Shown here in pieces: positions 5,202-17,217 of a DNA stretch of 64,000 bases. Under the pieces are notes generated by a model. The model was not told the origin of the DNA. It saw only the letters and a list, made by a program, of their open reading frames with translations, and did no database searches. This DNA comes from Streptomyces sp. ICC1 (GTDB lineage: Bacteria > Actinomycetota > Actinomycetes > Streptomycetales > Streptomycetaceae). The position numbers were made by a program, and so were the translations under genes. Each line of letters starts with the position of its first letter. The stretch's first letter is position 1. The stretch covers positions 3,066,267-3,130,266 of the forward strand of contig NZ_CP030287.1 of NCBI RefSeq assembly GCF_003287935.1, written 5' to 3'.

Positions 5202-6608
5202 GTGGCCATCACGTCACGCGCGCCCGCGCCCGGAGGCGGCCTCGCGGCGCCCTCCGCGCCGCCCGCGCCACCGCCCGACGGGCTGCCCCGGCGGGTCACC
5301 GCCTGGGCCGAGGGCGTGGACCGGCTGCGCGCGGCCGCCACGACCGAGCCGGGCCGGCTGCGGATCATCGGCGCGGTCCTGGCCGCTCTGGTCCTGCTGT
5401 TCGGCGCGGTGTCCTTCTGGGAGGTCTCCGGCCGGGTCACCGCCGCCGACGACGTGGTGGGCCGCAGCCAGCCGCTGAGCGCCGACGCGGCGAGCATCTA
5501 CCGCTCGCTGGCCGATGCCGACACGGCCTCCTCCAGCGGGTTCCTCGCGGGCAGCGACGAGCCGCGCGAGGTCCGCCAGCGGTACGAGAAGGACATGGCC
5601 AACGCGTCCCGGCTGCTGGTGAGCGCGGCCGCGAACACCACGGCCGGCGAGGACTCCCGCAAACAGATCACCCTGCTGAGCGAGCAGCTCCCCCGCTACT
5701 CCGGCCTCATCGAGCAGGCCCGGGCCACCAACAAGCAGGGCCTGCCGCTCGGCGGCGCCTACCTGCGCTACGCCAACGAGCAGATGAGCACCCAGCTGCT
5801 GCCCGCCGCGCAGCGGCTCTACGAGTCGGAGACCGGCCGGCTCTACACGGACTACGACGACGCCCGCTCCGTGCCGCTGGCCTCGATCGGCACGGGCCTG
5901 CTCGCGCTGGCCGCCCTGCTCTGGGCCCAGCTGCGCAACTACCGCCGGACCAACCGGGTCTTCAACCACGGGCTGGTCGCGGCGACCGCCGCCTCGCTGG
6001 TGGTGCTGCTGTGGCTGGTCGCCGGGCACACGGTCGCCCGGTCGGGGCTGAGCGAGGCGCGCGCGGAGGGGCAGGAGTCCCTCAAGGTGCTCAACGACGC
6101 GCGGATCGCCTCGCTGCGGGCGCGGGCGAACGAGAACCTGACGCTGATCTCGCGCGGCGCCGTCCTGGCGGACGACAAGAAGTCCGACAAGTACGACGTG
6201 GACTACGACCACGACATGAAGCTCCTGGAAGCGGGCCTCGCGACGGCGTCGAAGCTCGCGGACGACGAGGCCGGCCGCGCCCCGGTCGCCGGCGCCACCG
6301 ACGGGGTCAAGCGGTGGAAGGAACTGCACACGGCCGCCCGGCAGACGGACTTGAAGGGCGACTACCAGGGCGCCCTCGGCCAGGTCATCGGGGACAAGGA
6401 CCACAAGGAGTACAGCGGGACCGCCTTCGACACGGTGGACGCCTCGCTGGAACAGGCCGTGGTCCACGAGCAGCGGGAGTTCACCCGGGCGGCCCAGGGC
6501 GGGCTCGGGGCGCTCGACGGTTTGTTGACAGGCACGGCGGCCCTGGCGGTCGTCGGCGCGGTGGCGGCACTGCTCGGCATCGGCCGCAGGCTTTCGGAGT
6601 ACAGGTGA
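5202..6608 (+). CDS. glnX-like: GlnX-like sensory membrane protein
   Basis: A 468-residue membrane protein with a Pro/Ala-rich cytoplasmic N-terminus, a membrane segment at about 55-75, a mostly helical external domain (76-225), two membrane segments near 227-247 and 262-282, a second external domain (283-435) and a last membrane segment near 440-460. This layout and the neighbourhood match GlnX, which links the binding protein GlnH to kinase PknG in mycobacteria and corynebacteria. GTG 5202 was chosen because GGGGAGG precedes it. Its stop overlaps the next start (GTGA). The topology is read from the sequence; the signalling role is inferred from family and context. Confidence 0.8.
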   Translation: MAITSRAPAPGGGLAAPSAPPAPPPDGLPRRVTAWAEGVDRLRAAATTEPGRLRIIGAVLAALVLLFGAVSFWEVSGRVTAADDVVGRSQPLSADAASIYRSLADADTASSSGFLAGSDEPREVRQRYEKDMANASRLLVSAAANTTAGEDSRKQITLLSEQLPRYSGLIEQARATNKQGLPLGGAYLRYANEQMSTQLLPAAQRLYESETGRLYTDYDDARSVPLASIGTGLLALAALLWAQLRNYRRTNRVFNHGLVAATAASLVVLLWLVAGHTVARSGLSEARAEGQESLKVLNDARIASLRARANENLTLISRGAVLADDKKSDKYDVDYDHDMKLLEAGLATASKLADDEAGRAPVAGATDGVKRWKELHTAARQTDLKGDYQGALGQVIGDKDHKEYSGTAFDTVDASLEQAVVHEQREFTRAAQGGLGALDGLLTGTAALAVVGAVAALLGIGRRLSEYR

Positions 6609-7708
6609 GCGCGATGCCGGGACGGACGAGGCACGAGGACGAGGGCTCCGGGAACGCGGGGGCCATCGGGACCACCAGGGCCGCCGGGCTCCACGGCGCG
6701 GACGCGGAGCACGAGCCCGGCGGCCTGCGGCGGTTCGCGCGCCGGCTGCGCGGCTGGGGCGGGGTCGGCGCGATGGCGGCGGCCTGCGCGCTGACGGCCG
6801 CGGCCGTGCTCCTGCCACTGGCCCACGCGGCCCCGGGCGGCACGGGACACGCGGCGCCGGTGCGCGAGCCGGCCAGGATGGCCGTGGCCCCGCTGGCTCC
6901 CGGCGACACCTGCCAGGACCCGGAGGCGAGCCTGCGGCCGGGCGGACTGGACGGCCCGGCCATCCAGCGGATCCGCGCGGCGGGCCACCTCGTCGCGGGC
7001 GTGGACCAGAACAGCTTCAAGTGGGGCTACCGCAATCCGGCCGGCCAGCTCGACGGCTTCGACATCGCCCTGGTCAAGGCCATAGCCAAGGACATCCTCG
7101 GCGACGAGAAGGCGGTCATCTACCGGGCGATCCCCACCAGCCAGCGCATCCCCGCGCTCAAGGACAACACCGTCGACATCGTCGTGCGGACGATGACCAT
7201 CAACTGCAAGCGGCTGGAGGACGTCGCCTTCTCGACGGCGTACTTCGAGGCGGGACAGCAGGTGCTGGCGCCCAAGGGCTCGGCGATCACCGGCTACGAC
7301 GCCTCCCTGAAGGACCGCAGGATCTGCACGGCGGCCGGTTCCACGGCGGAGGCGGCCCTGGCCTCCCAGTCGTACGGGTCCGTCCCGGTCAGCGTGCCCA
7401 ACCAGCTGGACTGCCTGGTCCGGCTGCAGTTGGGCGAGGTGGACGGCATCATCACGGACAACGCCCTCGCCGCCGGCCAGGCCGCGCAGGACCCCTCGAT
7501 CCAGCTGGTCGGCTCCCCGTTCACCAAGGAGTTCTACGGGGTGGCCATGAACAAGGACGCCGGCGATCTGGTGCGGCGGGTCAACAAGGTCCTGGAGGAC
7601 TACCGTGCGGGCGGTGAGAACAGCCCGTGGATGAGCGCCTACACGACCCATCTCAAGCCCGTGCTGCCCGGCGTGAGCGGACCGCCGGCGCCCAAGTACC
7701 GGGACTGA
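6605..7708 (+). CDS. glnH-like: GlnH-like amino-acid-binding protein
   Basis: A 367-residue family 3 solute-binding protein with a hydrophobic signal segment near residues 57-80 and an Ala-His-Ala-type cleavage region. The substrate-domain pattern is typical: GFDIALVKAIAKDILG, then VDIVVRTMTIN and later DGIITDN. It resembles glutamate/glutamine/aspartate-binding proteins. There is no lipobox cysteine after the signal, unlike lipoprotein GlnH, so it may be secreted or anchored by its N-terminus. GTG 6605 overlaps the upstream stop by 4 bp; ATG 6614 is the alternative. No permease or ATPase accompanies it, which fits a sensing role better than transport. Confidence 0.85.
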   Translation: MSAMPGRTRHEDEGSGNAGAIGTTRAAGLHGADAEHEPGGLRRFARRLRGWGGVGAMAAACALTAAAVLLPLAHAAPGGTGHAAPVREPARMAVAPLAPGDTCQDPEASLRPGGLDGPAIQRIRAAGHLVAGVDQNSFKWGYRNPAGQLDGFDIALVKAIAKDILGDEKAVIYRAIPTSQRIPALKDNTVDIVVRTMTINCKRLEDVAFSTAYFEAGQQVLAPKGSAITGYDASLKDRRICTAAGSTAEAALASQSYGSVPVSVPNQLDCLVRLQLGEVDGIITDNALAAGQAAQDPSIQLVGSPFTKEFYGVAMNKDAGDLVRRVNKVLEDYRAGGENSPWMSAYTTHLKPVLPGVSGPPAPKYRD

Positions 7709-7713
7709 GGCCG

Positions 7714-9129
7714 GTGGCGGATTCTGAGCCCGATGTCACGAGACCGAAGGCGGGACCGGTGGAGGCACATCCTTTGGGGGCACATCCTTTGGGGGCACAG
7801 CCGGCAGTGCTGGACAGGGACGGCGTGGACCGCGCGCTGGCCCGGCTGGGCGCGGAGCACGAGGCCGTCGAGACCTCGCTGCTCGCGCTCCAGGACCACT
7901 CCGGGCGGCGGCTGCTGGAGGGCGCCGGGCTGACCGGGGTCACCAAGGAGCGGTGGGCCGTGGCGGACGCGGCCATCACCCGGCTGTGGCGCTACTTCGA
8001 CGCCTACAGCGGTGCGCTGGCCGCTGCCCGCGAGATCCGGGAGCGGCGGCGCTGGCCGAGCCGCGAGGACCTGGTCGAGCTGACCGACCGGCTGTGCGGG
8101 CCCGGGGTGCTGATCGCCGGGGCCGCGGTGGAGGGCGCCGCGCTCGCTGAGCGGTTCTCGCTCGCGGAGCTGGTGTCCCGGATGAACGAGCTGTACGCGG
8201 GCTCCCTGGACGTGGTGGTGGCCGCCGATTCGGTGTGGTCCGCGCTGCCCGCCCGGATCGACCTGCTCTCCGCCGAGCTGCACCGCACCCGCGCGCTCGC
8301 CCACTCGGTCGGGGTCCGTCCGGGGGAGCACCCCTCGGGGGACGACCTGGAGGCCATCACCGCCGAGCTGGCGGACCTGCGGGCGCGGGTGATCGAGGAC
8401 CCGCTGGCGTTCTGGGTCGCGGTGTCGGGGAGTTCGGCGCCGGGCGGCGGCCGGCCCGACACCGGGCGGTACGACCGGGCCGCCCTCGCGCTGGAGGACG
8501 TGCGCCGGGAGGTGGAGGCGGTGCTGGACGTCCGGCAGGACTCCGAGCAGCGGCTGATCGGCCTGCGGGACGTGCTCTCCCGGGCCGACCGGACCCTGGC
8601 GGAGGCCCGGGTGGCGCGCGGCGAGGTGCTGGCGAAGATCGCCGCGTCCGAGGTGCCCGCGGTGAGCGGTCCGCCGACGGCGCTGCAGGAGCAGCTGTCG
8701 GCGGCGGCCGAGTACCGGCGCCGGTCCCAGTGGCACCGGCTGTCCCCGCTGCTGGAGTCGTTGGAGGAGCGGGCCGAGGAGGAACTGCTGCGGGCCCGTG
8801 AATCGTTGACCGCGGTGACGGCCCCGCTCGCGGTGCGGGCGGAGCTGCGCGGGCGGCTCGACGCCTACAAGGCGAAGGTGGCCCGGCACGGGATGGCGGA
8901 GGACCCGCTGCTGATCGAGCGGTACGACACGGCCCGGCGGATGCTGTGGAGCGCGCCCTGCGATCTGCGGGCCGCCGAGCAGGCGGTGCTGCGCTACCAA
9001 TGGGCGACGGCCGAGACCCTGGTACCGCAGCAGCAACCACAGCAACACGAGCAACACGGGCACCAGCAACAGCAACAGCAGGCTTCGGATCGGGAGTGGC
9101 CCGCCGGGCCGGGAGAGGGGGACGCGTGA
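7714..9129 (+). CDS. Uncharacterised coiled-coil protein in the pknG locus
   Basis: A 471-residue soluble protein that I cannot assign to a family. It is mostly helical with long stretches rich in Ala, Glu, Leu and Arg that suggest coiled coil (for example around residues 25-75, 180-225 and 260-330). The last 35 residues are Gln/His-rich (runs of Q near 445-460). The N-terminus contains a repeated HPLGA pair from a tandem DNA repeat at 7765-7800. GTG 7714 follows TGAGG, and the 3' end overlaps pknG by 4 bp (GTGA). Its place between the binding protein and the kinase suggests an adaptor or scaffold in the pathway, which is inference only. Confidence 0.75.
   Translation: MADSEPDVTRPKAGPVEAHPLGAHPLGAQPAVLDRDGVDRALARLGAEHEAVETSLLALQDHSGRRLLEGAGLTGVTKERWAVADAAITRLWRYFDAYSGALAAAREIRERRRWPSREDLVELTDRLCGPGVLIAGAAVEGAALAERFSLAELVSRMNELYAGSLDVVVAADSVWSALPARIDLLSAELHRTRALAHSVGVRPGEHPSGDDLEAITAELADLRARVIEDPLAFWVAVSGSSAPGGGRPDTGRYDRAALALEDVRREVEAVLDVRQDSEQRLIGLRDVLSRADRTLAEARVARGEVLAKIAASEVPAVSGPPTALQEQLSAAAEYRRRSQWHRLSPLLESLEERAEEELLRARESLTAVTAPLAVRAELRGRLDAYKAKVARHGMAEDPLLIERYDTARRMLWSAPCDLRAAEQAVLRYQWATAETLVPQQQPQQHEQHGHQQQQQQASDREWPAGPGEGDA
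7765..7800 (+). repeat. Tandem 15-bp repeat in the coiled-coil gene
   Basis: Two adjacent copies of GCACATCCTTTGGGG encode HPLGA twice. The codons CAT, CCT and TTG are rare in this GC-rich genome, so the stretch stands out from the flanking sequence. The repeat unit is a whole number of codons. Confidence 0.7.
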
Positions 9130-11939
9130 GTCTGATCGCGGCGGCGTGCATGCGCCCCGGCTGCCCCGGCTCGTACGAGGACATGGGCGGCGGCGAGCTG
9201 TACTGCGACACCTGCGGCCTCGCGCCGGCCGGCGCGGTCGCGGCGGGCGCCGAGCAGCTGGTGTCGGTGCCGACGGCGATGACGAGCGCGGCGCGCCACG
9301 GGGATTCGCAGGGCTCCCAGGGGTCCCACGGGTCCGGGCGGTCCTCCTCCTCGGCCTCCTCGCGGGCCTCGCGGTCCTCGCGGTCGTCCTCCTCCCGGCG
9401 CTCCGTGTCGGGCCGGCTCTCGCGCGCGCTCACGGGCGCCGCGTCCACCCGGTCGGTGTCGGTGCGCAGTTCGGGCTCGGCCCCCTCGGCCTCGGGCCGC
9501 AGCCGGCTCGGGGCAGGGCTGGTCAACGTACCGGAGGTGCCGCGTCCGGATCCTTCGGAGTCGGTGCTGGAGAATCCGGAGGTCCCGGAGCGCAAGCGGT
9601 TCTGCTCGCGCTCGGACTGCGGTGCTCCGGTGGGCCGGGCGCGCGGTGAGCGGCCGGGACGGACGGAAGGTTTCTGCACCAAGTGCGGGCACCCGTACTC
9701 CTTCGTGCCGAAGCTGCACGCGGGCGACCTGGTCCACGGCCAGTACGAGGTCGCGGGCTGCCTCGCGCACGGCGGCCTCGGCTGGGTCTACCTCGCGGTG
9801 GACCGGGCCGTCTCGGACCGGTGGGTGGTGCTCAAGGGCCTGCTGGACACCGGCGACCAGGACGCCATGGCGGCCGCGATCTCGGAGCGGCGCTTCCTCG
9901 CGGAGATCGAGCACTCCAACATCGTGCGGATCTACAACTTCGTGGAGCACCTGGACCAGCGGACCGGTTCGCTGGACGGGTACATCGTGATGGAGTACGT
10001 CGGCGGCAAATCGCTCAAGGAGATCGCCAACGAGCGGCGGCGGACGGACGGGCGGCGCGATCCGCTGCCCGTGGAGCAGGCCTGCGCGTACGGCATCGAG
10101 GCCCTGGAGGCACTCGGCCACCTGCACAGCAGGAACCTCCTGTACTGCGACTTCAAGGTCGACAACGCCATCCAGCAGGCCGACCAGCTGAAGCTGATCG
10201 ACATGGGCGCGGTGCGGCGGATGGACGACGAGGAGTCGGCCATCTACGGCACCGTGGGCTACCAGGCGCCGGAGGTCGCGGAGGTCGGCCCCTCGGTCGC
10301 CTCCGACCTGTACACGGTGGCGCGCACGCTGGCCGTCCTGACCTTCGACTTCCAGGGTTACACCAACGTCTTCGTGGACTCGCTGCCGGACCCGGAGCAC
10401 ATCGAGGTGTTCGGGCGGTACGAGTCGTTCTACCGGCTGCTGGTACGGGCAACCGACCCCGATCCGGGCCGGCGCTTCTCCTCGGCGCAGGAGATGGCGG
10501 ACCAGCTGACGGGAGTGCTGCGCGAGGTCGTCGCGCTCCAGACGGGCCGGCCGAGGCCGCAGGTCTCCACGCTGTTCGGGCCGGAGCTGCGGGTCCCGGA
10601 CGACCGGCTGTTCACCGACGAGCCGGGAGCGGAGGTCTCCCGGCTGGGCAGGCGGCCCCCGAAGCGCCGCAGGACGGTCCGGGGTCCGGCCGTTCCGGCG
10701 ACCGGGGCCGGTCTTCCCCCGGCCTCCGTCCCGGGCTCGGCCGCCGGGTTCGGCCCGGGTGCGGGTCAGGGTGCCGGGTTCGGCCCGGGTGTGGGTGGGG
10801 GTCAGGGTGCGGGGTTCGGCCCGGGTGCGGCCGCGCCGGCCGCCGACCCGCTGGTGGCCCCCTCGGCGGCGCCGATCACGGGCTACGGAGCGTCCGGGCT
10901 CGTGACCACGGCGACGCACAAGGCCGCCGGTCCGGCCGTGCCCGCGCCGCGCCGCGCCCCGGCGGCCGTGGAGCCGGCGTCCGCCCCGGCCGCCGGGCGG
11001 CGGCCCGAGCTGTCGACGCTGGCCCCCCGCGTGGCCGCGCTGGCGCTGCCGGTTCCGCTGGTCGACGCCGCCGACCTCAACGCCGGATTCCTGGCGGGCC
11101 TGCTGGCCTCCGCCCCGGCCGACCTGCTGGCCGCCCTCGGCTCGGCACCGGCCGAATCCGCCGAGCTGCGGCTGCGGGAGCTCCGGGCCCGGCTGGAGCT
11201 GGGCGAGGCCGACGCGTCCCAGGTCTTCGAGGCACTGGCCGCGCTGGAGGCCCGCCATCCGGACGACTGGCGGGTGGTGTGGGCCCGCGGCATCGCCTCG
11301 CTGGCCGTCGGGGAGGACGAGACGGCGGCGCTGTCCTTCGACGCCGTCTACGACGCCTTCCCCGGCGAGCCCGCGCCGAAGCTGGCGCTGGGCCTGTGCG
11401 CCGAGGTCCTGGGGCAGCTGGACAACGCCGCCGAGTACTACCGCCTGGTGTGGGCCACCGACCCCGGCTTCGTCGGGGCCGCCTTCGGGCTGGCCCGGGT
11501 GCAGCTGGCCGCCGGGGACCGGGGCGGAGCCGTGCGCACCCTGGAGTCCGTACCGGAGGCCTCGATCCACTACACCGCCGCGCGGGTGGCGGCCGTACGG
11601 GCACGCCTGCGCGACCGGTCACCGCAGGAAGCCCTGCTGCCCGATCTGGCGGCGACCGCGGCCCAGGTGGAGGCACTGGGGAGGCTCGGCCTGGACTCGG
11701 TGCGCCACGAGCGCCTGAGGGCGGAGGTTCTGGGCTCGGCGCTGGACTGGGTACTGTCGGGTAGCCGGGGTTCCGACCCCGGAGGCACCTCGCTGTTCGG
11801 CTGCCAACTGGACGAGCGGGGGCTGCGCTTCGGCCTGGAGCGCTCGTTCCGCGTGCTGGCACGGCTGGCACAGCGGGGCGAGGAGAGGATCGAACTGGTG
11901 GAGCGGGCAAACCGTTTCCGTCCACGGACGTGGGTGTGA
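9126..11939 (+). CDS. pknG-like: PknG-type serine/threonine protein kinase
   Basis: A 937-residue cytosolic kinase with the PknG plan. Two Cys pairs near the N-terminus (Cys8/13 and 27/30) precede a Ser-rich linker, and a second rubredoxin-like cluster (FCSRSDC, then FCTKCG) lies near 160-190. The kinase domain follows: glycine loop AHGGLGWVYLA, lysine in VVLKGL, catalytic Asp in LLYCDFKVDN and metal Asp in LIDMGA, where DFG is altered as in PknG. A Gly/Pro-rich linker leads to a helical TPR-like C-terminal half (about 640-930). Mycobacterial PknG is about 750 residues, so this one is longer. GTG 9126 overlaps the upstream stop. Family members respond to amino acids and control 2-oxoglutarate metabolism. 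Confidence 0.9.
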   Translation: MSLIAAACMRPGCPGSYEDMGGGELYCDTCGLAPAGAVAAGAEQLVSVPTAMTSAARHGDSQGSQGSHGSGRSSSSASSRASRSSRSSSSRRSVSGRLSRALTGAASTRSVSVRSSGSAPSASGRSRLGAGLVNVPEVPRPDPSESVLENPEVPERKRFCSRSDCGAPVGRARGERPGRTEGFCTKCGHPYSFVPKLHAGDLVHGQYEVAGCLAHGGLGWVYLAVDRAVSDRWVVLKGLLDTGDQDAMAAAISERRFLAEIEHSNIVRIYNFVEHLDQRTGSLDGYIVMEYVGGKSLKEIANERRRTDGRRDPLPVEQACAYGIEALEALGHLHSRNLLYCDFKVDNAIQQADQLKLIDMGAVRRMDDEESAIYGTVGYQAPEVAEVGPSVASDLYTVARTLAVLTFDFQGYTNVFVDSLPDPEHIEVFGRYESFYRLLVRATDPDPGRRFSSAQEMADQLTGVLREVVALQTGRPRPQVSTLFGPELRVPDDRLFTDEPGAEVSRLGRRPPKRRRTVRGPAVPATGAGLPPASVPGSAAGFGPGAGQGAGFGPGVGGGQGAGFGPGAAAPAADPLVAPSAAPITGYGASGLVTTATHKAAGPAVPAPRRAPAAVEPASAPAAGRRPELSTLAPRVAALALPVPLVDAADLNAGFLAGLLASAPADLLAALGSAPAESAELRLRELRARLELGEADASQVFEALAALEARHPDDWRVVWARGIASLAVGEDETAALSFDAVYDAFPGEPAPKLALGLCAEVLGQLDNAAEYYRLVWATDPGFVGAAFGLARVQLAAGDRGGAVRTLESVPEASIHYTAARVAAVRARLRDRSPQEALLPDLAATAAQVEALGRLGLDSVRHERLRAEVLGSALDWVLSGSRGSDPGGTSLFGCQLDERGLRFGLERSFRVLARLAQRGEERIELVERANRFRPRTWV

Positions 11940-11942
11940 TTG

Positions 11943-13727
11943 ATGTCGATGCATCGGCCGTCGGGCTGCCCCAGCTGCGCGGAACCCCTGGAAGAGGGTG
12001 ACCGTTTCTGCGGATTCTGCGGACACGCCCTCACGGCCTCCGGCCCAGCGGCCTCCGCCCCCACCGGGCCGGCCGCCGCCGTGACCGCCCCGGCTCCGGC
12101 CTCGGCTCCGGTTCCGCCACCGGCTCCGGCTCCGCTCGCCCCTGCCGCGGAACCGGCGGATCCGGCCGCGGGGATCGCGGCCGGCGGGATTCCGGCCGGC
12201 GTTCCGGCCACGCGCGGCCGACCGGCGCCCGACGAGGTGCTCGCACCCCTGTCCTCCGGCGGCTCCGCCCCCGGCGGGTACGGCGCGCCGGCCGCCGCCG
12301 GGTACCCGGGCGGCGAGCCCGCGCCCGGCTGGGGCAGCACCTCCACGGCCGCACCCACCCTGGTCTCCGGGGTCGCCGGCTGGACCGACCCGGCCCCGGC
12401 GGACGCCCACGCGACGGCTCCGCGCTCCGCGGCACCGGACGGCGGCCCCGACCCGGCGCCCGATGCCCGGTCCCGGTACGACGGCCCCGTCCCGCAGCCC
12501 CAGCACCCGGCGGGCGGAGCCCCGTACGGCGCCGCGGCGCCGCAGGGCCCGGACCCCTTCGGCCCCACCGTCCCGCTCGGCCAGGGCTCCGCAGGCGCCT
12601 CGGGCTCCGCAGGCGCCTCGGGACACGAGGGCTCCGGGCACGCTCCGGAGCCGGACGGCCCGTACGGCGACCCCGGTCCCGGTTCCGGTCCCGGTTCCAC
12701 TTCCGGTTCCGGTTCCGCGGACCAGGCCCCGTACGGCGCTCCCGCCCCGCAGGGCGACGGCTCCGCGCACGAAGCCCCGTACGGCGGCGGCGAGCCGGAG
12801 TCCGGCGGGAAGACCTGCGTCGCGTGCCGCGCCGGGCGGGTGGACACCGACGGCTACTGCGAGCACTGCGGCCACGCGCAGCCCCGGGAGCGTGACCACC
12901 TCGAAGAGGAGCTCGGGAGCGTCGCCGCCGTCAGCGACCGCGGGCTGCGCCACCACCGCAACGAGGACTCCTTCGCCGTGGCGGCCACCGCGCTGCCCGA
13001 CGGGTCCGCCGCCACCGTGGCCATCGTCTGCGACGGCGTGTCCTCCGCCAGCCGCCCCGACGAGGCTTCGGCCGCCGCCGCGGGCGCCGCCAACGAGGCA
13101 CTGCTCGAGGCGCTCCCCCGCGGCGCCCACCCCCAGGAGGCCATGCACGAGGCGATCCTGGCCGCCGCCGCGGCCGTCAACGCCCTCGCGCCCGAGGTGC
13201 CCGGCGCCCAGAACGCCCCCGCCTGCACCCTGGTCGGCGCCGTCGTCAGCGGCGGCCTGCTGACCATCGGCTGGGTCGGCGACAGCCGTGCCTACTGGGT
13301 CCCGGACGACCGTGCCGCGCTCCCCCGCCGGCTCACCGAGGACGACTCCTGGGCCGCGCAGATGGTCGCGGCGGGCCTGATGGGCGAGGCCGAGGCCTAC
13401 GCCGACGTCCGCGCGCACGCCATCACCGGCTGGCTCGGGGCCGACGCGTACGACCTGGAACCGCACACCGCCACCTTCAAGCCCGACCACGACGGCGTGG
13501 TCGTGGTGTGCACCGACGGACTGTGGAACTACGCCGAGTCGGCGCGGGACCTGGCCCAGGTGCTCCCCTCCGACGCCGCCGTCCGGCCCCTGCACAGCGC
13601 GCAGGTCCTGGTGGGCCACGCGCTCGACGGCGGCGGGCACGACAACGTCACCGTGGCCGTCGTCCCGTTCTCCGCGCCGCCGCAGAGCCCGTCCGCGAGC
13701 CCCGCCGCCCCGCAGGCCCAGGCCTGA
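11943..13727 (+). CDS. PP2C-type Ser/Thr phosphatase with two zinc ribbons
   Basis: A 594-residue protein. An N-terminal zinc ribbon (Cys9, 12, 23, 26) is followed by about 250 residues of Ala/Pro/Gly-rich linker, a second zinc ribbon (CVAC then CEHC, near 290-310) and a PP2C domain. PP2C metal motifs are visible: RHHRNEDS, CDGVSS, GDSRAYW, CTDGLWNY and GGHDNVTVAV. It should reverse Ser/Thr phosphorylation, most likely by the kinase encoded 3 bp upstream. ATG 11943 is preferred over TTG 11940; ATG 11949 is also possible. The matching zinc ribbons in kinase, phosphatase and FHA protein suggest a shared docking scheme (inference). Confidence 0.9.
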   Translation: MSMHRPSGCPSCAEPLEEGDRFCGFCGHALTASGPAASAPTGPAAAVTAPAPASAPVPPPAPAPLAPAAEPADPAAGIAAGGIPAGVPATRGRPAPDEVLAPLSSGGSAPGGYGAPAAAGYPGGEPAPGWGSTSTAAPTLVSGVAGWTDPAPADAHATAPRSAAPDGGPDPAPDARSRYDGPVPQPQHPAGGAPYGAAAPQGPDPFGPTVPLGQGSAGASGSAGASGHEGSGHAPEPDGPYGDPGPGSGPGSTSGSGSADQAPYGAPAPQGDGSAHEAPYGGGEPESGGKTCVACRAGRVDTDGYCEHCGHAQPRERDHLEEELGSVAAVSDRGLRHHRNEDSFAVAATALPDGSAATVAIVCDGVSSASRPDEASAAAAGAANEALLEALPRGAHPQEAMHEAILAAAAAVNALAPEVPGAQNAPACTLVGAVVSGGLLTIGWVGDSRAYWVPDDRAALPRRLTEDDSWAAQMVAAGLMGEAEAYADVRAHAITGWLGADAYDLEPHTATFKPDHDGVVVVCTDGLWNYAESARDLAQVLPSDAAVRPLHSAQVLVGHALDGGGHDNVTVAVVPFSAPPQSPSASPAAPQAQA

Positions 13728-13753
13728 CACCCGTCCCCGAGGAGTACCGACCG

Positions 13754-15079
13754 ATGGCGAACTTCGCCAAGCCGAGTGCCCCGCGCTTCAGCGTGGAGGT
13801 GTACCAGAACGAGTTCCTCCCCGAGGGCGGCCGCGACGTCCACGCGATCGTCACGGTCACGTCCACGGGCGGGGCCACCGCCGCCCGGACCCCCGTGGCC
13901 GCGGGCGGCGCCGCCGTCGTGATCATGGTCGACTGCTCGGGCTCCATGGAGTACCCGCCCGACAAGATGCGCGGAGCCCGCGAGGCCACCGCCGCGGCCA
14001 TCGACACGCTCCGCGACGGCACCGCCTTCGCCGTGATCGCCGGCACGCACGTGGCCAAGGAGGTCTACCCGGGCCAGGGCCGCCTCGCGACCGCCGACGC
14101 GGCCACCCGCGCCCAGGCCAAGGGGGCCCTGCGCGGGCTCTCCTCCGGCGGCGGCACCGCCATCGGCACCTGGCTCCGCCTGGCCGACGGCCTGCTGCGC
14201 GGGGCCGGCGCCACGATAAAGCACGGGATCCTGCTGACCGACGGGCGCAACGAGCACGAGGAGCCGGCCGTCCTGCGCGCCGCCCTCGACGCCTGCGCGG
14301 GCCGGTTCACCTGTGACGCCCGCGGCGTGGGAACCGACTGGGAGGTCAAGGAGGTCACCGGGATCGCGAGCGCGCTGCTCGGCACCGCCGACATCGTGGC
14401 CGACCCGGCCCACCTCGCCGAGGACTTCACGCTCATGATGGAGAACGCCATGGGCAAGGAGGTCGCGGACGTCGCGCTGCGCCTGTGGACCCCGGTGGGC
14501 GTGGAGATCCAGTACGTCAAGCAGGTCGCCCCGGCCGTCCAGGACGTGACGGACCGCCGCACGCAGGCGGGCCCGCGCGCCGGGGACTACCCGACGGGTT
14601 CGTGGGGCGACGAGTCCCGCGAGTACCACGTGTGCGTCCGGGTCCCCAGCGCGTCCGTCGGCCAGGAGATGCTGGCCGCCCGCGCCACGCTCGTCATGCC
14701 GGGGGCGCCGGGCGATGCCCCGGCCGTCCTCGCCCAGGGCCTGGTCCGCGCCGTGTGGACGGACGACCTCGCCGCGTCCACCGCCATCAACCCGCAGGTG
14801 GCGCACTACACCGGGCAGGCGGAGCTCGCGCAGGCTATCCAACAGGGCCTGGAAGCCCGCAAAATGGGCGATGTCGGTGGCGCCACGGCCAAACTCGGCC
14901 GAGCCGTCCAGCTCGCGAGCGCCTCGGGCAACGCGGACACCGCGAAGCTCTTGGCCAAGGTGGTCGATGTCGTCGATGCGGCGGCGGGTACTGTGCGGCT
15001 GAAGGCCAAGGTCGCCGACGCTGACGAAATGACCCTTGAAACGCGTTCGACCCAAACCGTTCGAGTGAAGAAAGCCTGA
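13754..15079 (+). CDS. VWA-domain protein of the pknG locus
   Basis: A 441-residue soluble protein with a von Willebrand A domain. The metal-ion-dependent adhesion motif DCSGSM is near residues 58-63, with the conserved threonine in SGGGTAIGTW and the distal aspartate in LLTDGRNEH. A beta-rich middle and a helical C-terminal domain follow (TAKLGRAVQLA, then ending RVKKA). VWA domains hold protein partners through a bound metal. There is no signal peptide. The gene starts 26 bp after the phosphatase with GAGGAG upstream, so it is in the same operon. It could be a substrate, an assembly factor or an effector of the kinase pathway. Confidence 0.88.
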   Translation: MANFAKPSAPRFSVEVYQNEFLPEGGRDVHAIVTVTSTGGATAARTPVAAGGAAVVIMVDCSGSMEYPPDKMRGAREATAAAIDTLRDGTAFAVIAGTHVAKEVYPGQGRLATADAATRAQAKGALRGLSSGGGTAIGTWLRLADGLLRGAGATIKHGILLTDGRNEHEEPAVLRAALDACAGRFTCDARGVGTDWEVKEVTGIASALLGTADIVADPAHLAEDFTLMMENAMGKEVADVALRLWTPVGVEIQYVKQVAPAVQDVTDRRTQAGPRAGDYPTGSWGDESREYHVCVRVPSASVGQEMLAARATLVMPGAPGDAPAVLAQGLVRAVWTDDLAASTAINPQVAHYTGQAELAQAIQQGLEARKMGDVGGATAKLGRAVQLASASGNADTAKLLAKVVDVVDAAAGTVRLKAKVADADEMTLETRSTQTVRVKKA

Positions 15080-15167
15080 CCGCCAGGTCGGGCCCGCACG
15101 CTGGACAAGCCGAAGACGAAGAAGTGGACCCGCCTCGACCGGGCGGGAAGAAGGAGGAAGCGCCGCG

Positions 15168-16235
15168 ATGCCGACCTGCCCGAACGGGCACCAGTCCGCC
15201 TCCGACGACTGGTGCGAGGTCTGCGGCCACCGCATGGCTGCCCCCACGGGCAACCCCGGGGCGCCCTCCTACGGCTACGGCTACCCTCCCACCGGCGAGC
15301 CGACCGCCCAGGCCGAGCTCTGCCCGCAGTGCCGGACCCCGCGCGAGGCCATGGCCCCGTTCTGCGAGGAGTGCCGGTACAACTTCCTGACCCGTACGGC
15401 GACTTCGTACACGCCCCTCGCCCCGGACGCGGGACCGGGCGCGGGACCGGGCACTGGCCAGGGCGCCGGCCAGGGTGCGCACGGCGGCCCCGGCGGCGCC
15501 GGGACCCGGACCATGGGCACGCCGGGCCCGCCGCCGCCCTCTCCGGGCGCGCCGTCGGCCCCGCCCGCGTACTCCCAGGACCACTTCGACTACCAGGGCT
15601 CGCGGCCCTCCCGGGTCAACCGGCCGGCCGAGCCGCTGCAGCGCGAGGACGACTGGATGCTGCCGCCCCCGGCGCACCAGGAGTACCAGCAGCCCCAGTA
15701 CCAGCAGCAGCCCCCGCCGCCCCAGCAGCAGCAGCCTCAGTACCAGCAACCGGGGCAGTACCCGCCGCCGCAGCCGCAAGGGCACCACCAGCAGCCCCAC
15801 CAGCCCTTCCCGCCCCAGCCGCAGGGCGGCGGCGCCTGGACCGCGACCATCGGCCCGGACCGCTCGTACTTCATGGCGATGATGCACCGCAGCGGTCCCG
15901 AGGCCGCCGGGCTCAGCCTGCCCGCGTACTCCCCCGAGCAGCACCTGCCGCTCACCGGGGGCCAGATCACCATCGGCCGCCGCCGCGCCTCGACGGGCGA
16001 GTCCCCCGACATCGACCTGTCGGTGCCCCCGGAGGACCCGGGCGTCTCGCACCAGCACGCGGTGCTCGTCCAGCAGCCCGACGGCAGCTGGGCGGTGGTG
16101 GACCAGAACTCCACCAACGGGACGACCATCAACGGGGGCGAGGAGTCCATCCAGCCCTACGTGCCGGTCCCCCTCGGCGACGGCGACCGCGTCCACGTCG
16201 GCGCCTGGACCACGATCACCGTCCGGCGCGGCTGA
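15168..16235 (+). CDS. FHA-domain protein with N-terminal zinc ribbons
   Basis: A 355-residue protein with a zinc ribbon at the N-terminus (Cys4, His8, Cys16, Cys19), a second Cys-pair set near 48-68 (CPQC and CEEC), a Pro/Gln-rich linker (about 90-215) and a C-terminal FHA domain. The FHA core is intact: ITIGRRR, VSHQHAVL and DQNSTNGTTING. FHA domains bind phosphothreonine, so this is the natural reader of the upstream kinase. It lacks the short N-terminal Thr motif of GarA/OdhI, so it is not simply a GarA orthologue. It is the last gene before the terminator; an AAGGAGG site precedes ATG 15168. Confidence 0.9.
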   Translation: MPTCPNGHQSASDDWCEVCGHRMAAPTGNPGAPSYGYGYPPTGEPTAQAELCPQCRTPREAMAPFCEECRYNFLTRTATSYTPLAPDAGPGAGPGTGQGAGQGAHGGPGGAGTRTMGTPGPPPPSPGAPSAPPAYSQDHFDYQGSRPSRVNRPAEPLQREDDWMLPPPAHQEYQQPQYQQQPPPPQQQQPQYQQPGQYPPPQPQGHHQQPHQPFPPQPQGGGAWTATIGPDRSYFMAMMHRSGPEAAGLSLPAYSPEQHLPLTGGQITIGRRRASTGESPDIDLSVPPEDPGVSHQHAVLVQQPDGSWAVVDQNSTNGTTINGGEESIQPYVPVPLGDGDRVHVGAWTTITVRRG

Positions 16236-16281
16236 CCGGGCGCGTCTGACCCGGCGCGGCCGCGGGTCCTGAACGCGGCGA

Positions 16282-16314
16282 AGCCCTCCGGCGACACACC
16301 GGAGGGCTCCGTTT
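16282..16314 (+). terminator. Rho-independent terminator after the FHA gene
   Basis: A perfect 10-bp stem (AGCCCTCCGG at 16282-16291, CCGGAGGGCT at 16299-16308) with a 7-nt loop, followed by CCGTTTT. It lies 46 bp after the FHA stop and 15 bp before the end of the convergent membrane-protein gene. It closes the seven-gene operon and may serve both directions. Confidence 0.85.
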
Positions 16315-16329
16315 TCGGACCGGGGATGC

Positions 16330-17217
16330 TCAGCCGCCGACCAGGGGGTCCCGTGCACCCCGCCGACGGCGCACGCCCACCACCACTGCGGCGACCAGCA
16401 GCAGGACCAGCAGGACGGCGAGCGTGAGCGGGAGCAGCGACCCGGGCGTCGCACCGAAGTACAGGAACGGCAGTCCCGCGAGCAAGACGGCGGGTGCGGT
16501 GCACAGCCGGGCGAACGCCGGGCGTCCGGCCAACAGCAGTCCGGCGGCCACCGGCACGACGAAGCGCAGCTGGGTGAACGGGTACTCCAGCGGGACCACC
16601 AGCACCGCACCCTCCAGCACCAGCGTCCACGCCATCACGGCGGCCACCCCGGCCCGGGTGCGGATCCGCGGAGCCGGCCGCAGGTCCGGCGGGCACGCCA
16701 CCGCCCCCAGGGCCAGGGCCAGGGTCGGGGCCAGGACGAGCATCGGGGTGGTGAAGAGCGCCGAGATCCCGATGCCACCGATGCCCGTCCGGAACGTAGT
16801 GGCGGCGATCTCCACGACCACTCCCACCAGCACGATCCAGTTGCCCACCGGCCAGCGGCCGGCCAGTGCGAGGAACACGCCGAGCAGCATGACCAGGTAT
16901 CCCGCGACCAGCGTCACGAAACCCGCGCCGACCTGTCCCCCGGCGAAGAGGGCGTAGCGCATCAATCCGACCCATCCCGACGCGGTCGCCCCGACCACGA
17001 CCAAGGCGAACGGCGCCAGCGCCGCCAGGAGTCGGCCGGGCCGACCCGTGGAGCCCAGGCCGAGCCGCATGCGCAGGGCGTGTCCGGCCACGTCGGCACC
17101 TTCCCGTAGCCGGGCGGGCGCCCCCGCCCCTCGCGTGGCCTCCCGGTACGCGTCGGCGATCTCGTCGCCGAACTCCCGCCGGTAGGCGGCGGGATACAGC
17201 CTCAGCAGCGTGGTCAC
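16330..17217 (-). CDS. PadR-linked polytopic membrane protein
   Basis: A 295-residue integral membrane protein. The cytoplasmic N-terminus (LLRLYPAAYRREFGDEIADAYRE) resembles that of proteins often found beside PadR repressors, followed by seven or eight hydrophobic segments and an Arg-rich C-terminus. GTG 17217 overlaps the padR stop by 4 bp, so the two are co-translated. By analogy with other PadR pairs it may be a stress or efflux component whose production the repressor controls. No transport motif was recognised. Confidence 0.75.
   Translation of the reverse strand: MTTLLRLYPAAYRREFGDEIADAYREATRGAGAPARLREGADVAGHALRMRLGLGSTGRPGRLLAALAPFALVVVGATASGWVGLMRYALFAGGQVGAGFVTLVAGYLVMLLGVFLALAGRWPVGNWIVLVGVVVEIAATTFRTGIGGIGISALFTTPMLVLAPTLALALGAVACPPDLRPAPRIRTRAGVAAVMAWTLVLEGAVLVVPLEYPFTQLRFVVPVAAGLLLAGRPAFARLCTAPAVLLAGLPFLYFGATPGSLLPLTLAVLLVLLLVAAVVVGVRRRRGARDPLVGG

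What the first reader, a model, noticed from the sequence alone, without database searches (positions are those of the whole stretch)
5202..16235. A complete PknG signalling operon: sensor, kinase, phosphatase, VWA protein and phosphothreonine reader
Seven co-directional genes encode GlnX-like, GlnH-like, an unknown coiled-coil protein, PknG-type kinase, PP2C phosphatase, VWA protein and FHA protein, with GTGA overlaps at three junctions and a terminator after the last. In mycobacteria and corynebacteria only the first parts of this set are known to sit together and to report amino-acid status. Here writer, eraser and reader of Ser/Thr phosphorylation are in one transcript with the sensor, plus two proteins (coiled-coil and VWA) with no known role. 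This is the best candidate for a poorly described system in the window.
Basis: partly seen in the sequence, partly recalled or inferred. Interest (0 to 1): 0.85.

Follow-up and report, generated by a model that had tools for sequence, protein, structure and literature searches.

The report
PknG operon with built-in phospho-switch
In Streptomyces and many related bacteria, a known amino-acid-sensing kinase system sits in one gene cluster with its own phosphatase, a helical protein, and two proteins resembling a nutrient switch from archaea, suggesting that the textbook mycobacterial version is a trimmed-down form.

Summary
The seven genes are real, co-directional and in the stated order (5202-16235): GlnX, GlnH, a helical coiled-coil protein (CC), PknG, PP2C, VWA, FHA, then a terminator hairpin. 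Two junctions, not three, have GTGA overlaps. The host is a Streptomyces. All seven occur in this order in 61 of 80 named Streptomycetaceae loci; 18 of the other 19 run off a contig end. The set recurs in other families, in one of them in another order, and in one genome of a second class. In a 266-genome class sample, 43 of 47 PknG-positive genomes outside Streptomyces and the Nocardia/mycobacterial family keep PknG beside PP2C, VWA, FHA or CC. The published three-gene operon is the rule only in that last family, where the PknG tree suggests loss. VWA is an ArnB relative (Foldseek: 4fx5, then the Sulfolobus ArnAB complex); FHA has ArnA's zinc-ribbon plus FHA layout. VWA ends in a conserved Thr tail, present in 60 of 60 loci with PP2C and FHA and 0 of 10 without PP2C. 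Best reading: an ArnAB-like phospho-switch driven by GlnH-GlnX-PknG. No phosphorylation, binding or co-transcription was tested. New variant of a known kind.

The parts
5202..6608 (+). GlnX: membrane signal transducer, four transmembrane segments by inspection
   Evidence: NCBIfam NF058618 472.6 bits, cut-off 250; frame
6605..7708 (+). GlnH: periplasmic amino-acid-binding protein; no lipobox seen by inspection
   Evidence: SBP_bac_3 1.8e-23; best solved relative M. tuberculosis GlnH 6h2t, 175.9 bits; pocket residues
7714..9129 (+). CC: all-helical elongated protein of unknown role, hallmark of the extended operon
   Evidence: no Pfam or NCBIfam match; AlphaFold2 mean pLDDT 90.6
9126..11939 (+). 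PknG kinase
   Evidence: Pfam rubredoxin, kinase and PknG_TPR domains; 2pzi 564 bits
9147..9215 (+). extra N-terminal zinc ribbon of PknG (C-x4-C-x13-C-x2-C), typical of extended operons
   Evidence: sequence
9495..9716 (+). PknG rubredoxin domain
   Evidence: PF16919 114 bits
9747..10346 (+). PknG kinase domain
   Evidence: PF00069 8.5e-25
11010..11930 (+). PknG TPR domain
   Evidence: PF16918 4.2e-85
11943..13727 (+). PP2C phosphatase with two zinc ribbons ahead of the catalytic domain (start could be 11943 or 11949)
   Evidence: PP2C_2 1.8e-12 and Zn_Ribbon_1; Stp1 family 105.7 bits, below its cut-off 230
11967..12020 (+). first zinc ribbon of PP2C
   Evidence: Pfam PF13240; sequence
12816..12869 (+). 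second zinc ribbon of PP2C
   Evidence: sequence; relatives
13754..15079 (+). VWA protein, ArnB-like: vWA domain, beta-sandwich, C-terminal helices, Thr tail
   Evidence: Pfam VWA and VWA_3_C; 4fx5 446.6 bits; fold matches 8s05 and 5a8j
13931..13945 (+). MIDAS DxSxS motif of VWA (DCSGS)
   Evidence: D60, S62, S64 invariant in alignment A4
15023..15076 (+). conserved C-terminal tail of VWA, DEMTLETRSTQTVRVKKA: proposed phospho-acceptor and FHA ligand
   Evidence: pLDDT under 50 at 425-441 in the model
15168..16235 (+). FHA reader: zinc-ribbon N terminus, long Pro/Gln-rich linker, FHA domain
   Evidence: FHA 1e-15; ribbons
15177..15224 (+). first, ribbon-like motif of the FHA protein (CxxxH and CxxC)
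   Evidence: sequence, by inspection
15321..15374 (+). zinc ribbon of the FHA protein (CxxC and CxxC)
   Evidence: sequence; relatives
15966..16202 (+). FHA domain
   Evidence: PF00498
16282..16308 (+). terminator hairpin after the operon
   Evidence: fold of 16262-16330, -39.2 kcal/mol, z -4.0

Best explanation
One signalling unit that couples the known GlnH-GlnX-PknG amino-acid sensor to an ArnAB-like phospho-switch. GlnH binds an amino acid outside, GlnX passes the state inward, and PknG is activated (inferred from the studied orthologues). PknG then phosphorylates threonines in the C-terminal tail of the ArnB-like VWA protein (inferred). The zinc-ribbon FHA protein, laid out like ArnA, binds VWA loosely through its ribbon and tightly through pThr (inferred from Sulfolobus), and the ribbon-bearing PP2C removes the phosphate (inferred). 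The ribbons on kinase, phosphatase and reader would dock them to the same VWA hub; CC would be a helical scaffold between GlnX and PknG (weakest step). GarA, encoded elsewhere with its ETTS motif, stays a second PknG target. Shown here: the gene set, its conservation, the ArnB fold relation, the tail and ribbon associations. Not shown: any phosphorylation, binding or output.
For: Order conserved in 61 of 80 named loci, 18 of the other 19 cut by contig ends; set kept when permuted (Nocardiopsis-type family) or on two strands (one genome of another class). VWA: the model matches over about 400 columns 4fx5, then 8s05 (ArnAB complex), then 5a8j (ArnB paralogue), ahead of every other entry in Foldseek's ranking; a profile of 13 relatives also reaches ArnB (8s05_A, E 1e-6, vWA part only). 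In Sulfolobus ArnA binds the ArnB C terminus that carries the phosphosites, its zinc finger docks on unphosphorylated ArnB, and a kinase and a phosphatase switch the complex (PMC6509490, PMC7472852, PMC12852372). Tail motif L[DE]xxSxxT: 60 of 60 VWA proteins in loci with PP2C and FHA, 0 of 10 in loci without PP2C. Extra PknG ribbon: 63 of 64 scored VWA-linked PknG, 2 of 42 scored bare PknG. PP2C has two ribbons in 87 of 88 Streptomycetaceae and 31 of 35 other cases. GarA with ETTS in this genome.
Against: No biochemical evidence. Three Nocardiopsis-type loci (L136, L137, L145) keep CC, PknG, PP2C and FHA but show no VWA. L276, L278 and L310 have the ribbon without VWA; L278 and L310 are bare PknG. 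In the 13-row alignment only S432 and T435 among the tail's Ser/Thr are invariant; T430 is Ala or Val in three rows, so the likeness to GarA ETTS and ArnB IETT is partial. In the profile search generic vWA proteins (4cn8, 9c4f) score better than ArnB, and in VIA-align's ranking 8s05 is sixth, among single-domain vWA matches, and 5a8j is not in the 50 rows shown. The VWA model is weak (mean pLDDT 65.8). The ArnAB authors wrote that other ArnB-like proteins mostly take no part in such multi-phosphorylation; even in Sulfolobus no single site is essential and no phosphopeptide fell in step with the loss of ArnA binding. GarA's own zinc ribbon does not track the operon. In the class of G169 only 1 of 24 genomes has CC.
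Confidence: 0.5

Rival explanations
1. Only the known GlnX-GlnH-PknG to GarA metabolic control works here; CC, PP2C, VWA and FHA are conserved neighbours with a separate housekeeping role.
For: GlnX, GlnH, PknG and an ETTS-bearing GarA are all present; mycobacteria and C. glutamicum manage with the three-gene operon (passages of PMC6069109 and PMC9769921); of 47 sampled PknG-positive genomes outside the two big groups, G537, G544 and G589 show none of the four genes beside PknG, G455 shows only PP2C, and G375's main copy is three-gene.
Against: The four genes stay with PknG through order change and strand split, CC and VWA_3_C matches are almost all beside PknG, and PknG itself carries an extra ribbon mainly in such loci.
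Confidence: 0.25
2. The FHA protein and PP2C act on PknG itself: autophosphorylated N-terminal Thr/Ser of PknG are read by FHA and erased by PP2C, as GarA docks on phosphorylated PknG in mycobacteria (recalled); VWA is only a structural partner.
For: A Ser-rich basic stretch ahead of the rubredoxin domain in the 13 Streptomyces PknG rows printed; three loci keep PP2C and FHA without VWA.
Against: In Streptomyces that stretch is mostly Ser with few conserved Thr, whereas FHA domains prefer pThr (recalled); VWA tail loss goes with PP2C absence.
Confidence: 0.15
3. A defence or conflict system using a vWA and kinase core, related to the trypsin/kinase/VWA triads found elsewhere in Streptomyces.
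For: Paralogous loci L036-L038, L304 and L040 couple a PknG-like kinase and VWA; in L036, L037 and L040 the protein upstream looks trypsin-like by inspection; trypsins and vWA proteins occur in conflict systems (PMC7159879, passages).
Against: PADLOC hits only the kinase domain of gene 4; CC is in 37 of 37 same-genus genomes of the class scan, as one place per genome; GlnX and GlnH are nutrient sensors in studied orthologues.
Confidence: 0.05

Closest known systems
GlnH-GlnX-PknG-GarA/OdhI amino-acid signalling of mycobacteria and corynebacteria
   Same: The same three genes in the same relative order, PknG domains, and a GarA with ETTS in the genome.
   Different: Four further genes; an extra N-terminal zinc ribbon on PknG; the GlnH pocket residue Trp232 is Gln in 95 of 98 aligned Streptomycetaceae rows; this GlnH lacks an evident lipobox.
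ArnA-ArnB switch of Sulfolobus acidocaldarius with kinase ArnC and phosphatase PP2A
   Same: Zinc-ribbon plus FHA partner; vWA with beta-sandwich and C-terminal helices; Thr-bearing C terminus; kinase and phosphatase.
   Different: PP2C instead of PP2A; kinase is PknG with a membrane sensor; all in one gene cluster; no known output; phosphorylation unproven.
4FX5, VWA protein of Catenulispora acidiphila
   Same: 446.6 bits over residues 7-440, same tail STKT.
   Different: No function found in the passages seen; its gene neighbourhood was not examined here.
TerY-P triad and type VI secretion PpkA/PppA/Fha threonine pathway (both recalled; a review passage lists PpkA, PppA and Fha1)
   Same: Kinase, PP2C, vWA (and FHA) together.
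   Different: No TerY family or type VI secretion genes were looked for; PknG, GlnX and GlnH are not part of those systems (recalled).

Membership tests
GlnX-GlnH-PknG-GarA system | GlnX family membrane protein | tested here: met
   NF058618 472.6 over cut-off 250; the narrower equivalog NF041460 is below its cut-off (179.3 of 780)
GlnX-GlnH-PknG-GarA system | PknG with rubredoxin, kinase and TPR domains | tested here: met
GlnX-GlnH-PknG-GarA system | GlnH with acidic-amino-acid pocket | tested here: inconclusive
   R147, T162, R169, D250 kept, S164 to Thr, K161 to Arg, W232 to Gln
GlnX-GlnH-PknG-GarA system | GarA/OdhI with ETTS phospho-motif in the genome | tested here: met
   193.3 bits (just under the curated cut-off of 200) and ETTS
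GlnX-GlnH-PknG-GarA system | PknG activity controlled by amino acids through GlnH/GlnX | not testable with these tools
   needs experiment
ArnAB-type switch | tripartite vWA, beta-sandwich, helical protein related to ArnB | tested here: met
ArnAB-type switch | partner with N-terminal zinc finger and FHA domain | tested here: met
   zinc ribbon and FHA in gene 7; homology to ArnA itself not tested
ArnAB-type switch | phosphorylated C terminus read by the FHA domain | not testable with these tools
   only motif conservation
ArnAB-type switch | dedicated kinase and phosphatase | tested here: inconclusive
   PknG and PP2C are adjacent; that they act on VWA is untested and the phosphatase class differs
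Anti-phage system (PADLOC) | specific defence protein models beyond a kinase domain | tested here: not met
   only kinase-domain matches in gene 4 (25 rows shown); none in the other six at E 1e-5
T6SS threonine pathway / TerY-P triad | T6SS genes or TerY family protein | not tested
   no search run

The most novel reading that the evidence does not exclude
The PknG operon is ancestrally a seven-gene sensor-to-ArnAB-type switch found across much of the Actinomycetes. The famous mycobacterial and corynebacterial GlnX-GlnH-PknG operon is a reduced copy that lost CC, phosphatase, VWA hub and reader, together with the PknG zinc ribbon that docked on the hub. The VWA tail is a PknG substrate still missing from the literature, and ArnAB-type switches link nutrient sensing to phosphorylation in both bacteria and archaea.
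Probability: 0.35. Interest if true: 0.85.

Novelty: new variant of a known kind. Interest (0 to 1): 0.68.

Why it matters
PknG is intensely studied in mycobacteria as a nutrient-sensing kinase and virulence factor, with GlnX and GlnH as its only known operon partners in the papers I saw. If the larger set is the older form, the studied system is a remnant, and Streptomyces offers a harmless host in which PknG has its phosphatase, reader and a candidate substrate next door. It also suggests a function for an orphan crystal structure (4FX5) and would show that the ArnA-ArnB switch, so far archaeal, has a bacterial counterpart with a defined input.

Tried and rejected
GarA zinc ribbon as a marker of the module: in 25 genomes it was in 13 of 13 seven-gene genomes outside f3 and in none of the other 12. 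With 88 genomes it was also in 39 of 62 scored genomes without a CC match (3 unscored), so I dropped it. Some of those later proved to have extended operons with a divergent CC (G423, G445, G469), but 11 that carry the ribbon (G396, G398-G401, G404, G405, G407-G409, G411) have no PknG match.

Strict rule 'PknG ribbon equals VWA': weakened by L136, L137, L145, L276, L278 and L310; I keep it as an association. Eight VWA-linked and seven other loci could not be scored for lack of an anchor, and two were too short. Of 46 bare loci, 29 are from f3, so they are not independent.

Defence reading: PADLOC gave only kinase-domain hits. The CC profile search listed the 120 best of 2580 proteins, all Streptomyces where named, so I searched with a Nocardiopsis-type and a Nocardia-type CC. 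Paper searches; only PMC1262709 held both PknG and vWA as whole words, and the passages seen do not describe this operon.
Full report
What is there. The window holds seven co-directional genes from 5202 to 16235, with high third-position GC in every frame. Domain scans give GlnX (NCBIfam NF058618, 472.6 bits over a cut-off of 250), a family 3 solute-binding protein, a protein without any family (CC), PknG with rubredoxin, kinase and TPR domains, PP2C with zinc ribbons, a vWA protein with the VWA_3_C tail domain, and an FHA protein with zinc-ribbon motifs. A hairpin of ten inner pairs with a U-rich tail follows the last gene. The assembly is one contig of 9.03 Mb. It is a Streptomyces: G222, which the tool calls same genus, has a first contig of 772272 bases, the length of the S. 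griseoviridis JCM 4250 contig that holds L119.

Conservation in the genus. Of 19 same-genus loci besides the window, 17 hold all seven genes in order (one, L022, with CC in two pieces); L029 starts at a contig edge and L030 has broken copies. Of 80 named Streptomycetaceae loci, 61 are complete in order; 18 of the other 19 stop within 500 bases of a contig end, and L086 lacks only a GlnX match. In the 61 complete loci, GlnX/GlnH overlap by four bases in 57 and CC/PknG in 36. In a phylum sample of 396 genomes, CC matched 23 (22 over nearly the whole length: 20 of 20 same-genus with the window's own, G367 and G169; G375 only the last part) and VWA_3_C 24. Of these, 22 of 23 and 23 of 24 lie within 6 kb of a PknG TPR match on the same contig, counting G375's PknG-like paralogue. 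The exceptions are G339 (contig break) and G278 (weak match).

Beyond Streptomyces. A class sample of 344 genomes gave CC matches in 84. I fetched 40 regions around such matches. Families f7, f108, f93 and two f3 genomes show the order GlnX-GlnH-CC-PknG-PP2C-VWA-FHA (CC under my HMM threshold in three f7 loci). In f92 (Nocardiopsis and relatives by the names) the order is CC-PknG-PP2C-VWA-FHA-GlnX-GlnH; there L136, L137 and L145 have no VWA match, L149 only a remnant, and some f93 loci lack PP2C. G169, of another class, has GlnX-GlnH on one strand and the other five on the opposite strand; only 1 of 24 genomes of that class has CC, so transfer is possible there. To avoid choosing by CC, I searched 266 class genomes for the PknG rubredoxin domain: 95 have it, 25 of the window's genus, 23 of f3 and 47 others. 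Of the 47, 43 keep PknG beside at least one of CC, PP2C, VWA and FHA, 31 beside PP2C, VWA and FHA together, and 23 beside all six partners. G537, G544 and G589 showed none (in G544 and G589 only one divergent copy was seen), and G375 has a three-gene locus plus a VWA-linked paralogue. Four positives of the window's genus (G560, G567, G582, G598) were not fetched. f3 holds Nocardia by name match and, by recall of GTDB, is the mycobacterial family: all 23 sampled f3 genomes have a GlnX-GlnH-PknG locus, and one, G595, has a seven-gene locus besides. All f3 loci fetched, G669 included, are 25 GlnX-GlnH-PknG, 4 PknG alone and 2 seven-gene; G669 and G595 each keep three-gene copies too.

Direction of change. 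A PknG tree of 53 rows (chosen by me; near-copies and seven diverged paralogues left out, an earlier tree of 64 rows agreeing) puts the three-gene and solo f3 kinases in one clade (100/100) whose sister is the seven-gene pair L158/L159 (100/98 for the join), inside the wider seven-gene diversity. The extended or bare state needs two changes. On such a two-change history the f3 three-gene state is a loss. Transfer of seven-gene operons into f3 is not excluded, and the deepest forks are unresolved.

The tail. The window protein ends DEMTLETRSTQTVRVKKA. Of 87 Streptomycetaceae tails, 84 keep ST[KRQ]T near the end; three do not, one of them from the broken L030. Across 13 diverse rows D424, E425, L428, S432 and T435 are invariant, while T430 is Ala or Val in three. 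A motif L[DE]xxSxxT is present in 60 of 60 VWA proteins (E under 1e-100) from loci with PP2C and FHA and in 0 of 10 from loci without PP2C; 24 of these 70 loci are of the window's genus. Five of the ten have a related form such as IGVDSTKT, and the reading of L162 is unsure. The ten fall in few clades, so this is a handful of events, not seventy. ArnB phosphopeptides include LIET*T*RR and SIET*T*RR (the later study found no phosphate on the first), and GarA's site is ETTS, so part of the tail resembles both; this is suggestive only.

Zinc ribbons. PknG of extended operons has an extra N-terminal ribbon before the rubredoxin domain. By locus, 63 of 64 scored VWA-linked PknG have it whole or with one ligand changed (the exception, L165, has a broken kinase frame), against 2 of 42 scored bare PknG (L278, L310) and 8 of 9 with other extended genes but no VWA seen; 15 loci had no anchor and two were too short. 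PP2C carries two ribbons in 87 of 88 Streptomycetaceae and 31 of 35 other cases; FHA proteins carry at least one by the same pattern in 115 of 118. From the ArnAB structure I infer that the ribbons dock kinase, phosphatase and reader on the VWA hub.

Sensor end. GlnH keeps R147, T162, R169 and D250 of the M. tuberculosis pocket, with S164 to Thr, K161 to Arg and W232 to Gln. Gln is at 232 in 95 of 98 Streptomycetaceae rows (one His, two gaps) and Tyr in 17 of 17 f92 rows. PMC6069109 gives R147, T162 and W232 side-chain contacts to the aspartate ligand, so the ligand may differ here. GarA with ETTS is encoded elsewhere in the genome.

CC. AlphaFold gives a confident all-helical protein (mean pLDDT 90.6) without a fold match above noise. 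A scaffold role is a guess from shape and from its place between GlnH and PknG.

What is known. [quoted passage not shown] glutamicum. I found no description of the four further genes in the library searched. Most subscription papers are not held, so a report elsewhere is possible. The TerY-P triad and the type VI threonine pathway are recalled as similar toolkits and were not tested.

Verdict. The strongest new points are the wide conservation of the seven-gene set, the derived look of the mycobacterial three-gene form, and the ArnB relation with a conserved Thr tail that goes with the phosphatase. The mechanism is a testable inference.

Noticed in passing
L036:6975-12367, L037:5682-11082, L038, L304, L040:5659-10987: Second PknG-like kinases in several Streptomyces and in G375 sit beside a VWA protein with its own zinc ribbon; in L036, L037 and L040 an upstream protein that looks trypsin-like by inspection has a C terminus faintly like CC.
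   Followed up: partly
L030:4630-11908 and L303:7647-12701: Two Streptomyces genomes (G295, G590) have decayed operons: CC, PP2C and FHA remain, while matches to PknG, GlnX, GlnH and VWA are broken (L030) or missing (L303).
   Followed up: no
L162:4249-14737, L163:4093-14850, L179:3641-14131: f93 loci with GlnX-GlnH pairs on both sides of CC-PknG-VWA-FHA, without PP2C and without the VWA tail motif.
   Followed up: partly
L136:4954-13146, L137:4998-12988, L145:4602-12722: Nocardiopsis-type operons with no VWA match but the other six genes; L149 has only a VWA remnant.
   Followed up: no
L171-L173 and L159 (G669): A Nocardia genome (by name match of its CC) with four PknG copies: one three-gene, two without GlnX and GlnH matches nearby, one seven-gene.
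   Followed up: partly
window 6605-6850: This GlnH starts with a long N-terminal region, an arginine-rich RRFARRL and no evident lipobox, unlike the lipoprotein GlnH of C. glutamicum; in L041 a lipobox-like FMSAC is seen.
   Followed up: no
G000:C1:6657883-6658239 (L002): GarA of this genome has an N-terminal zinc ribbon; such ribbons are common in GarA of the class but absent in the 12 f3 genomes sampled.
   Followed up: yes
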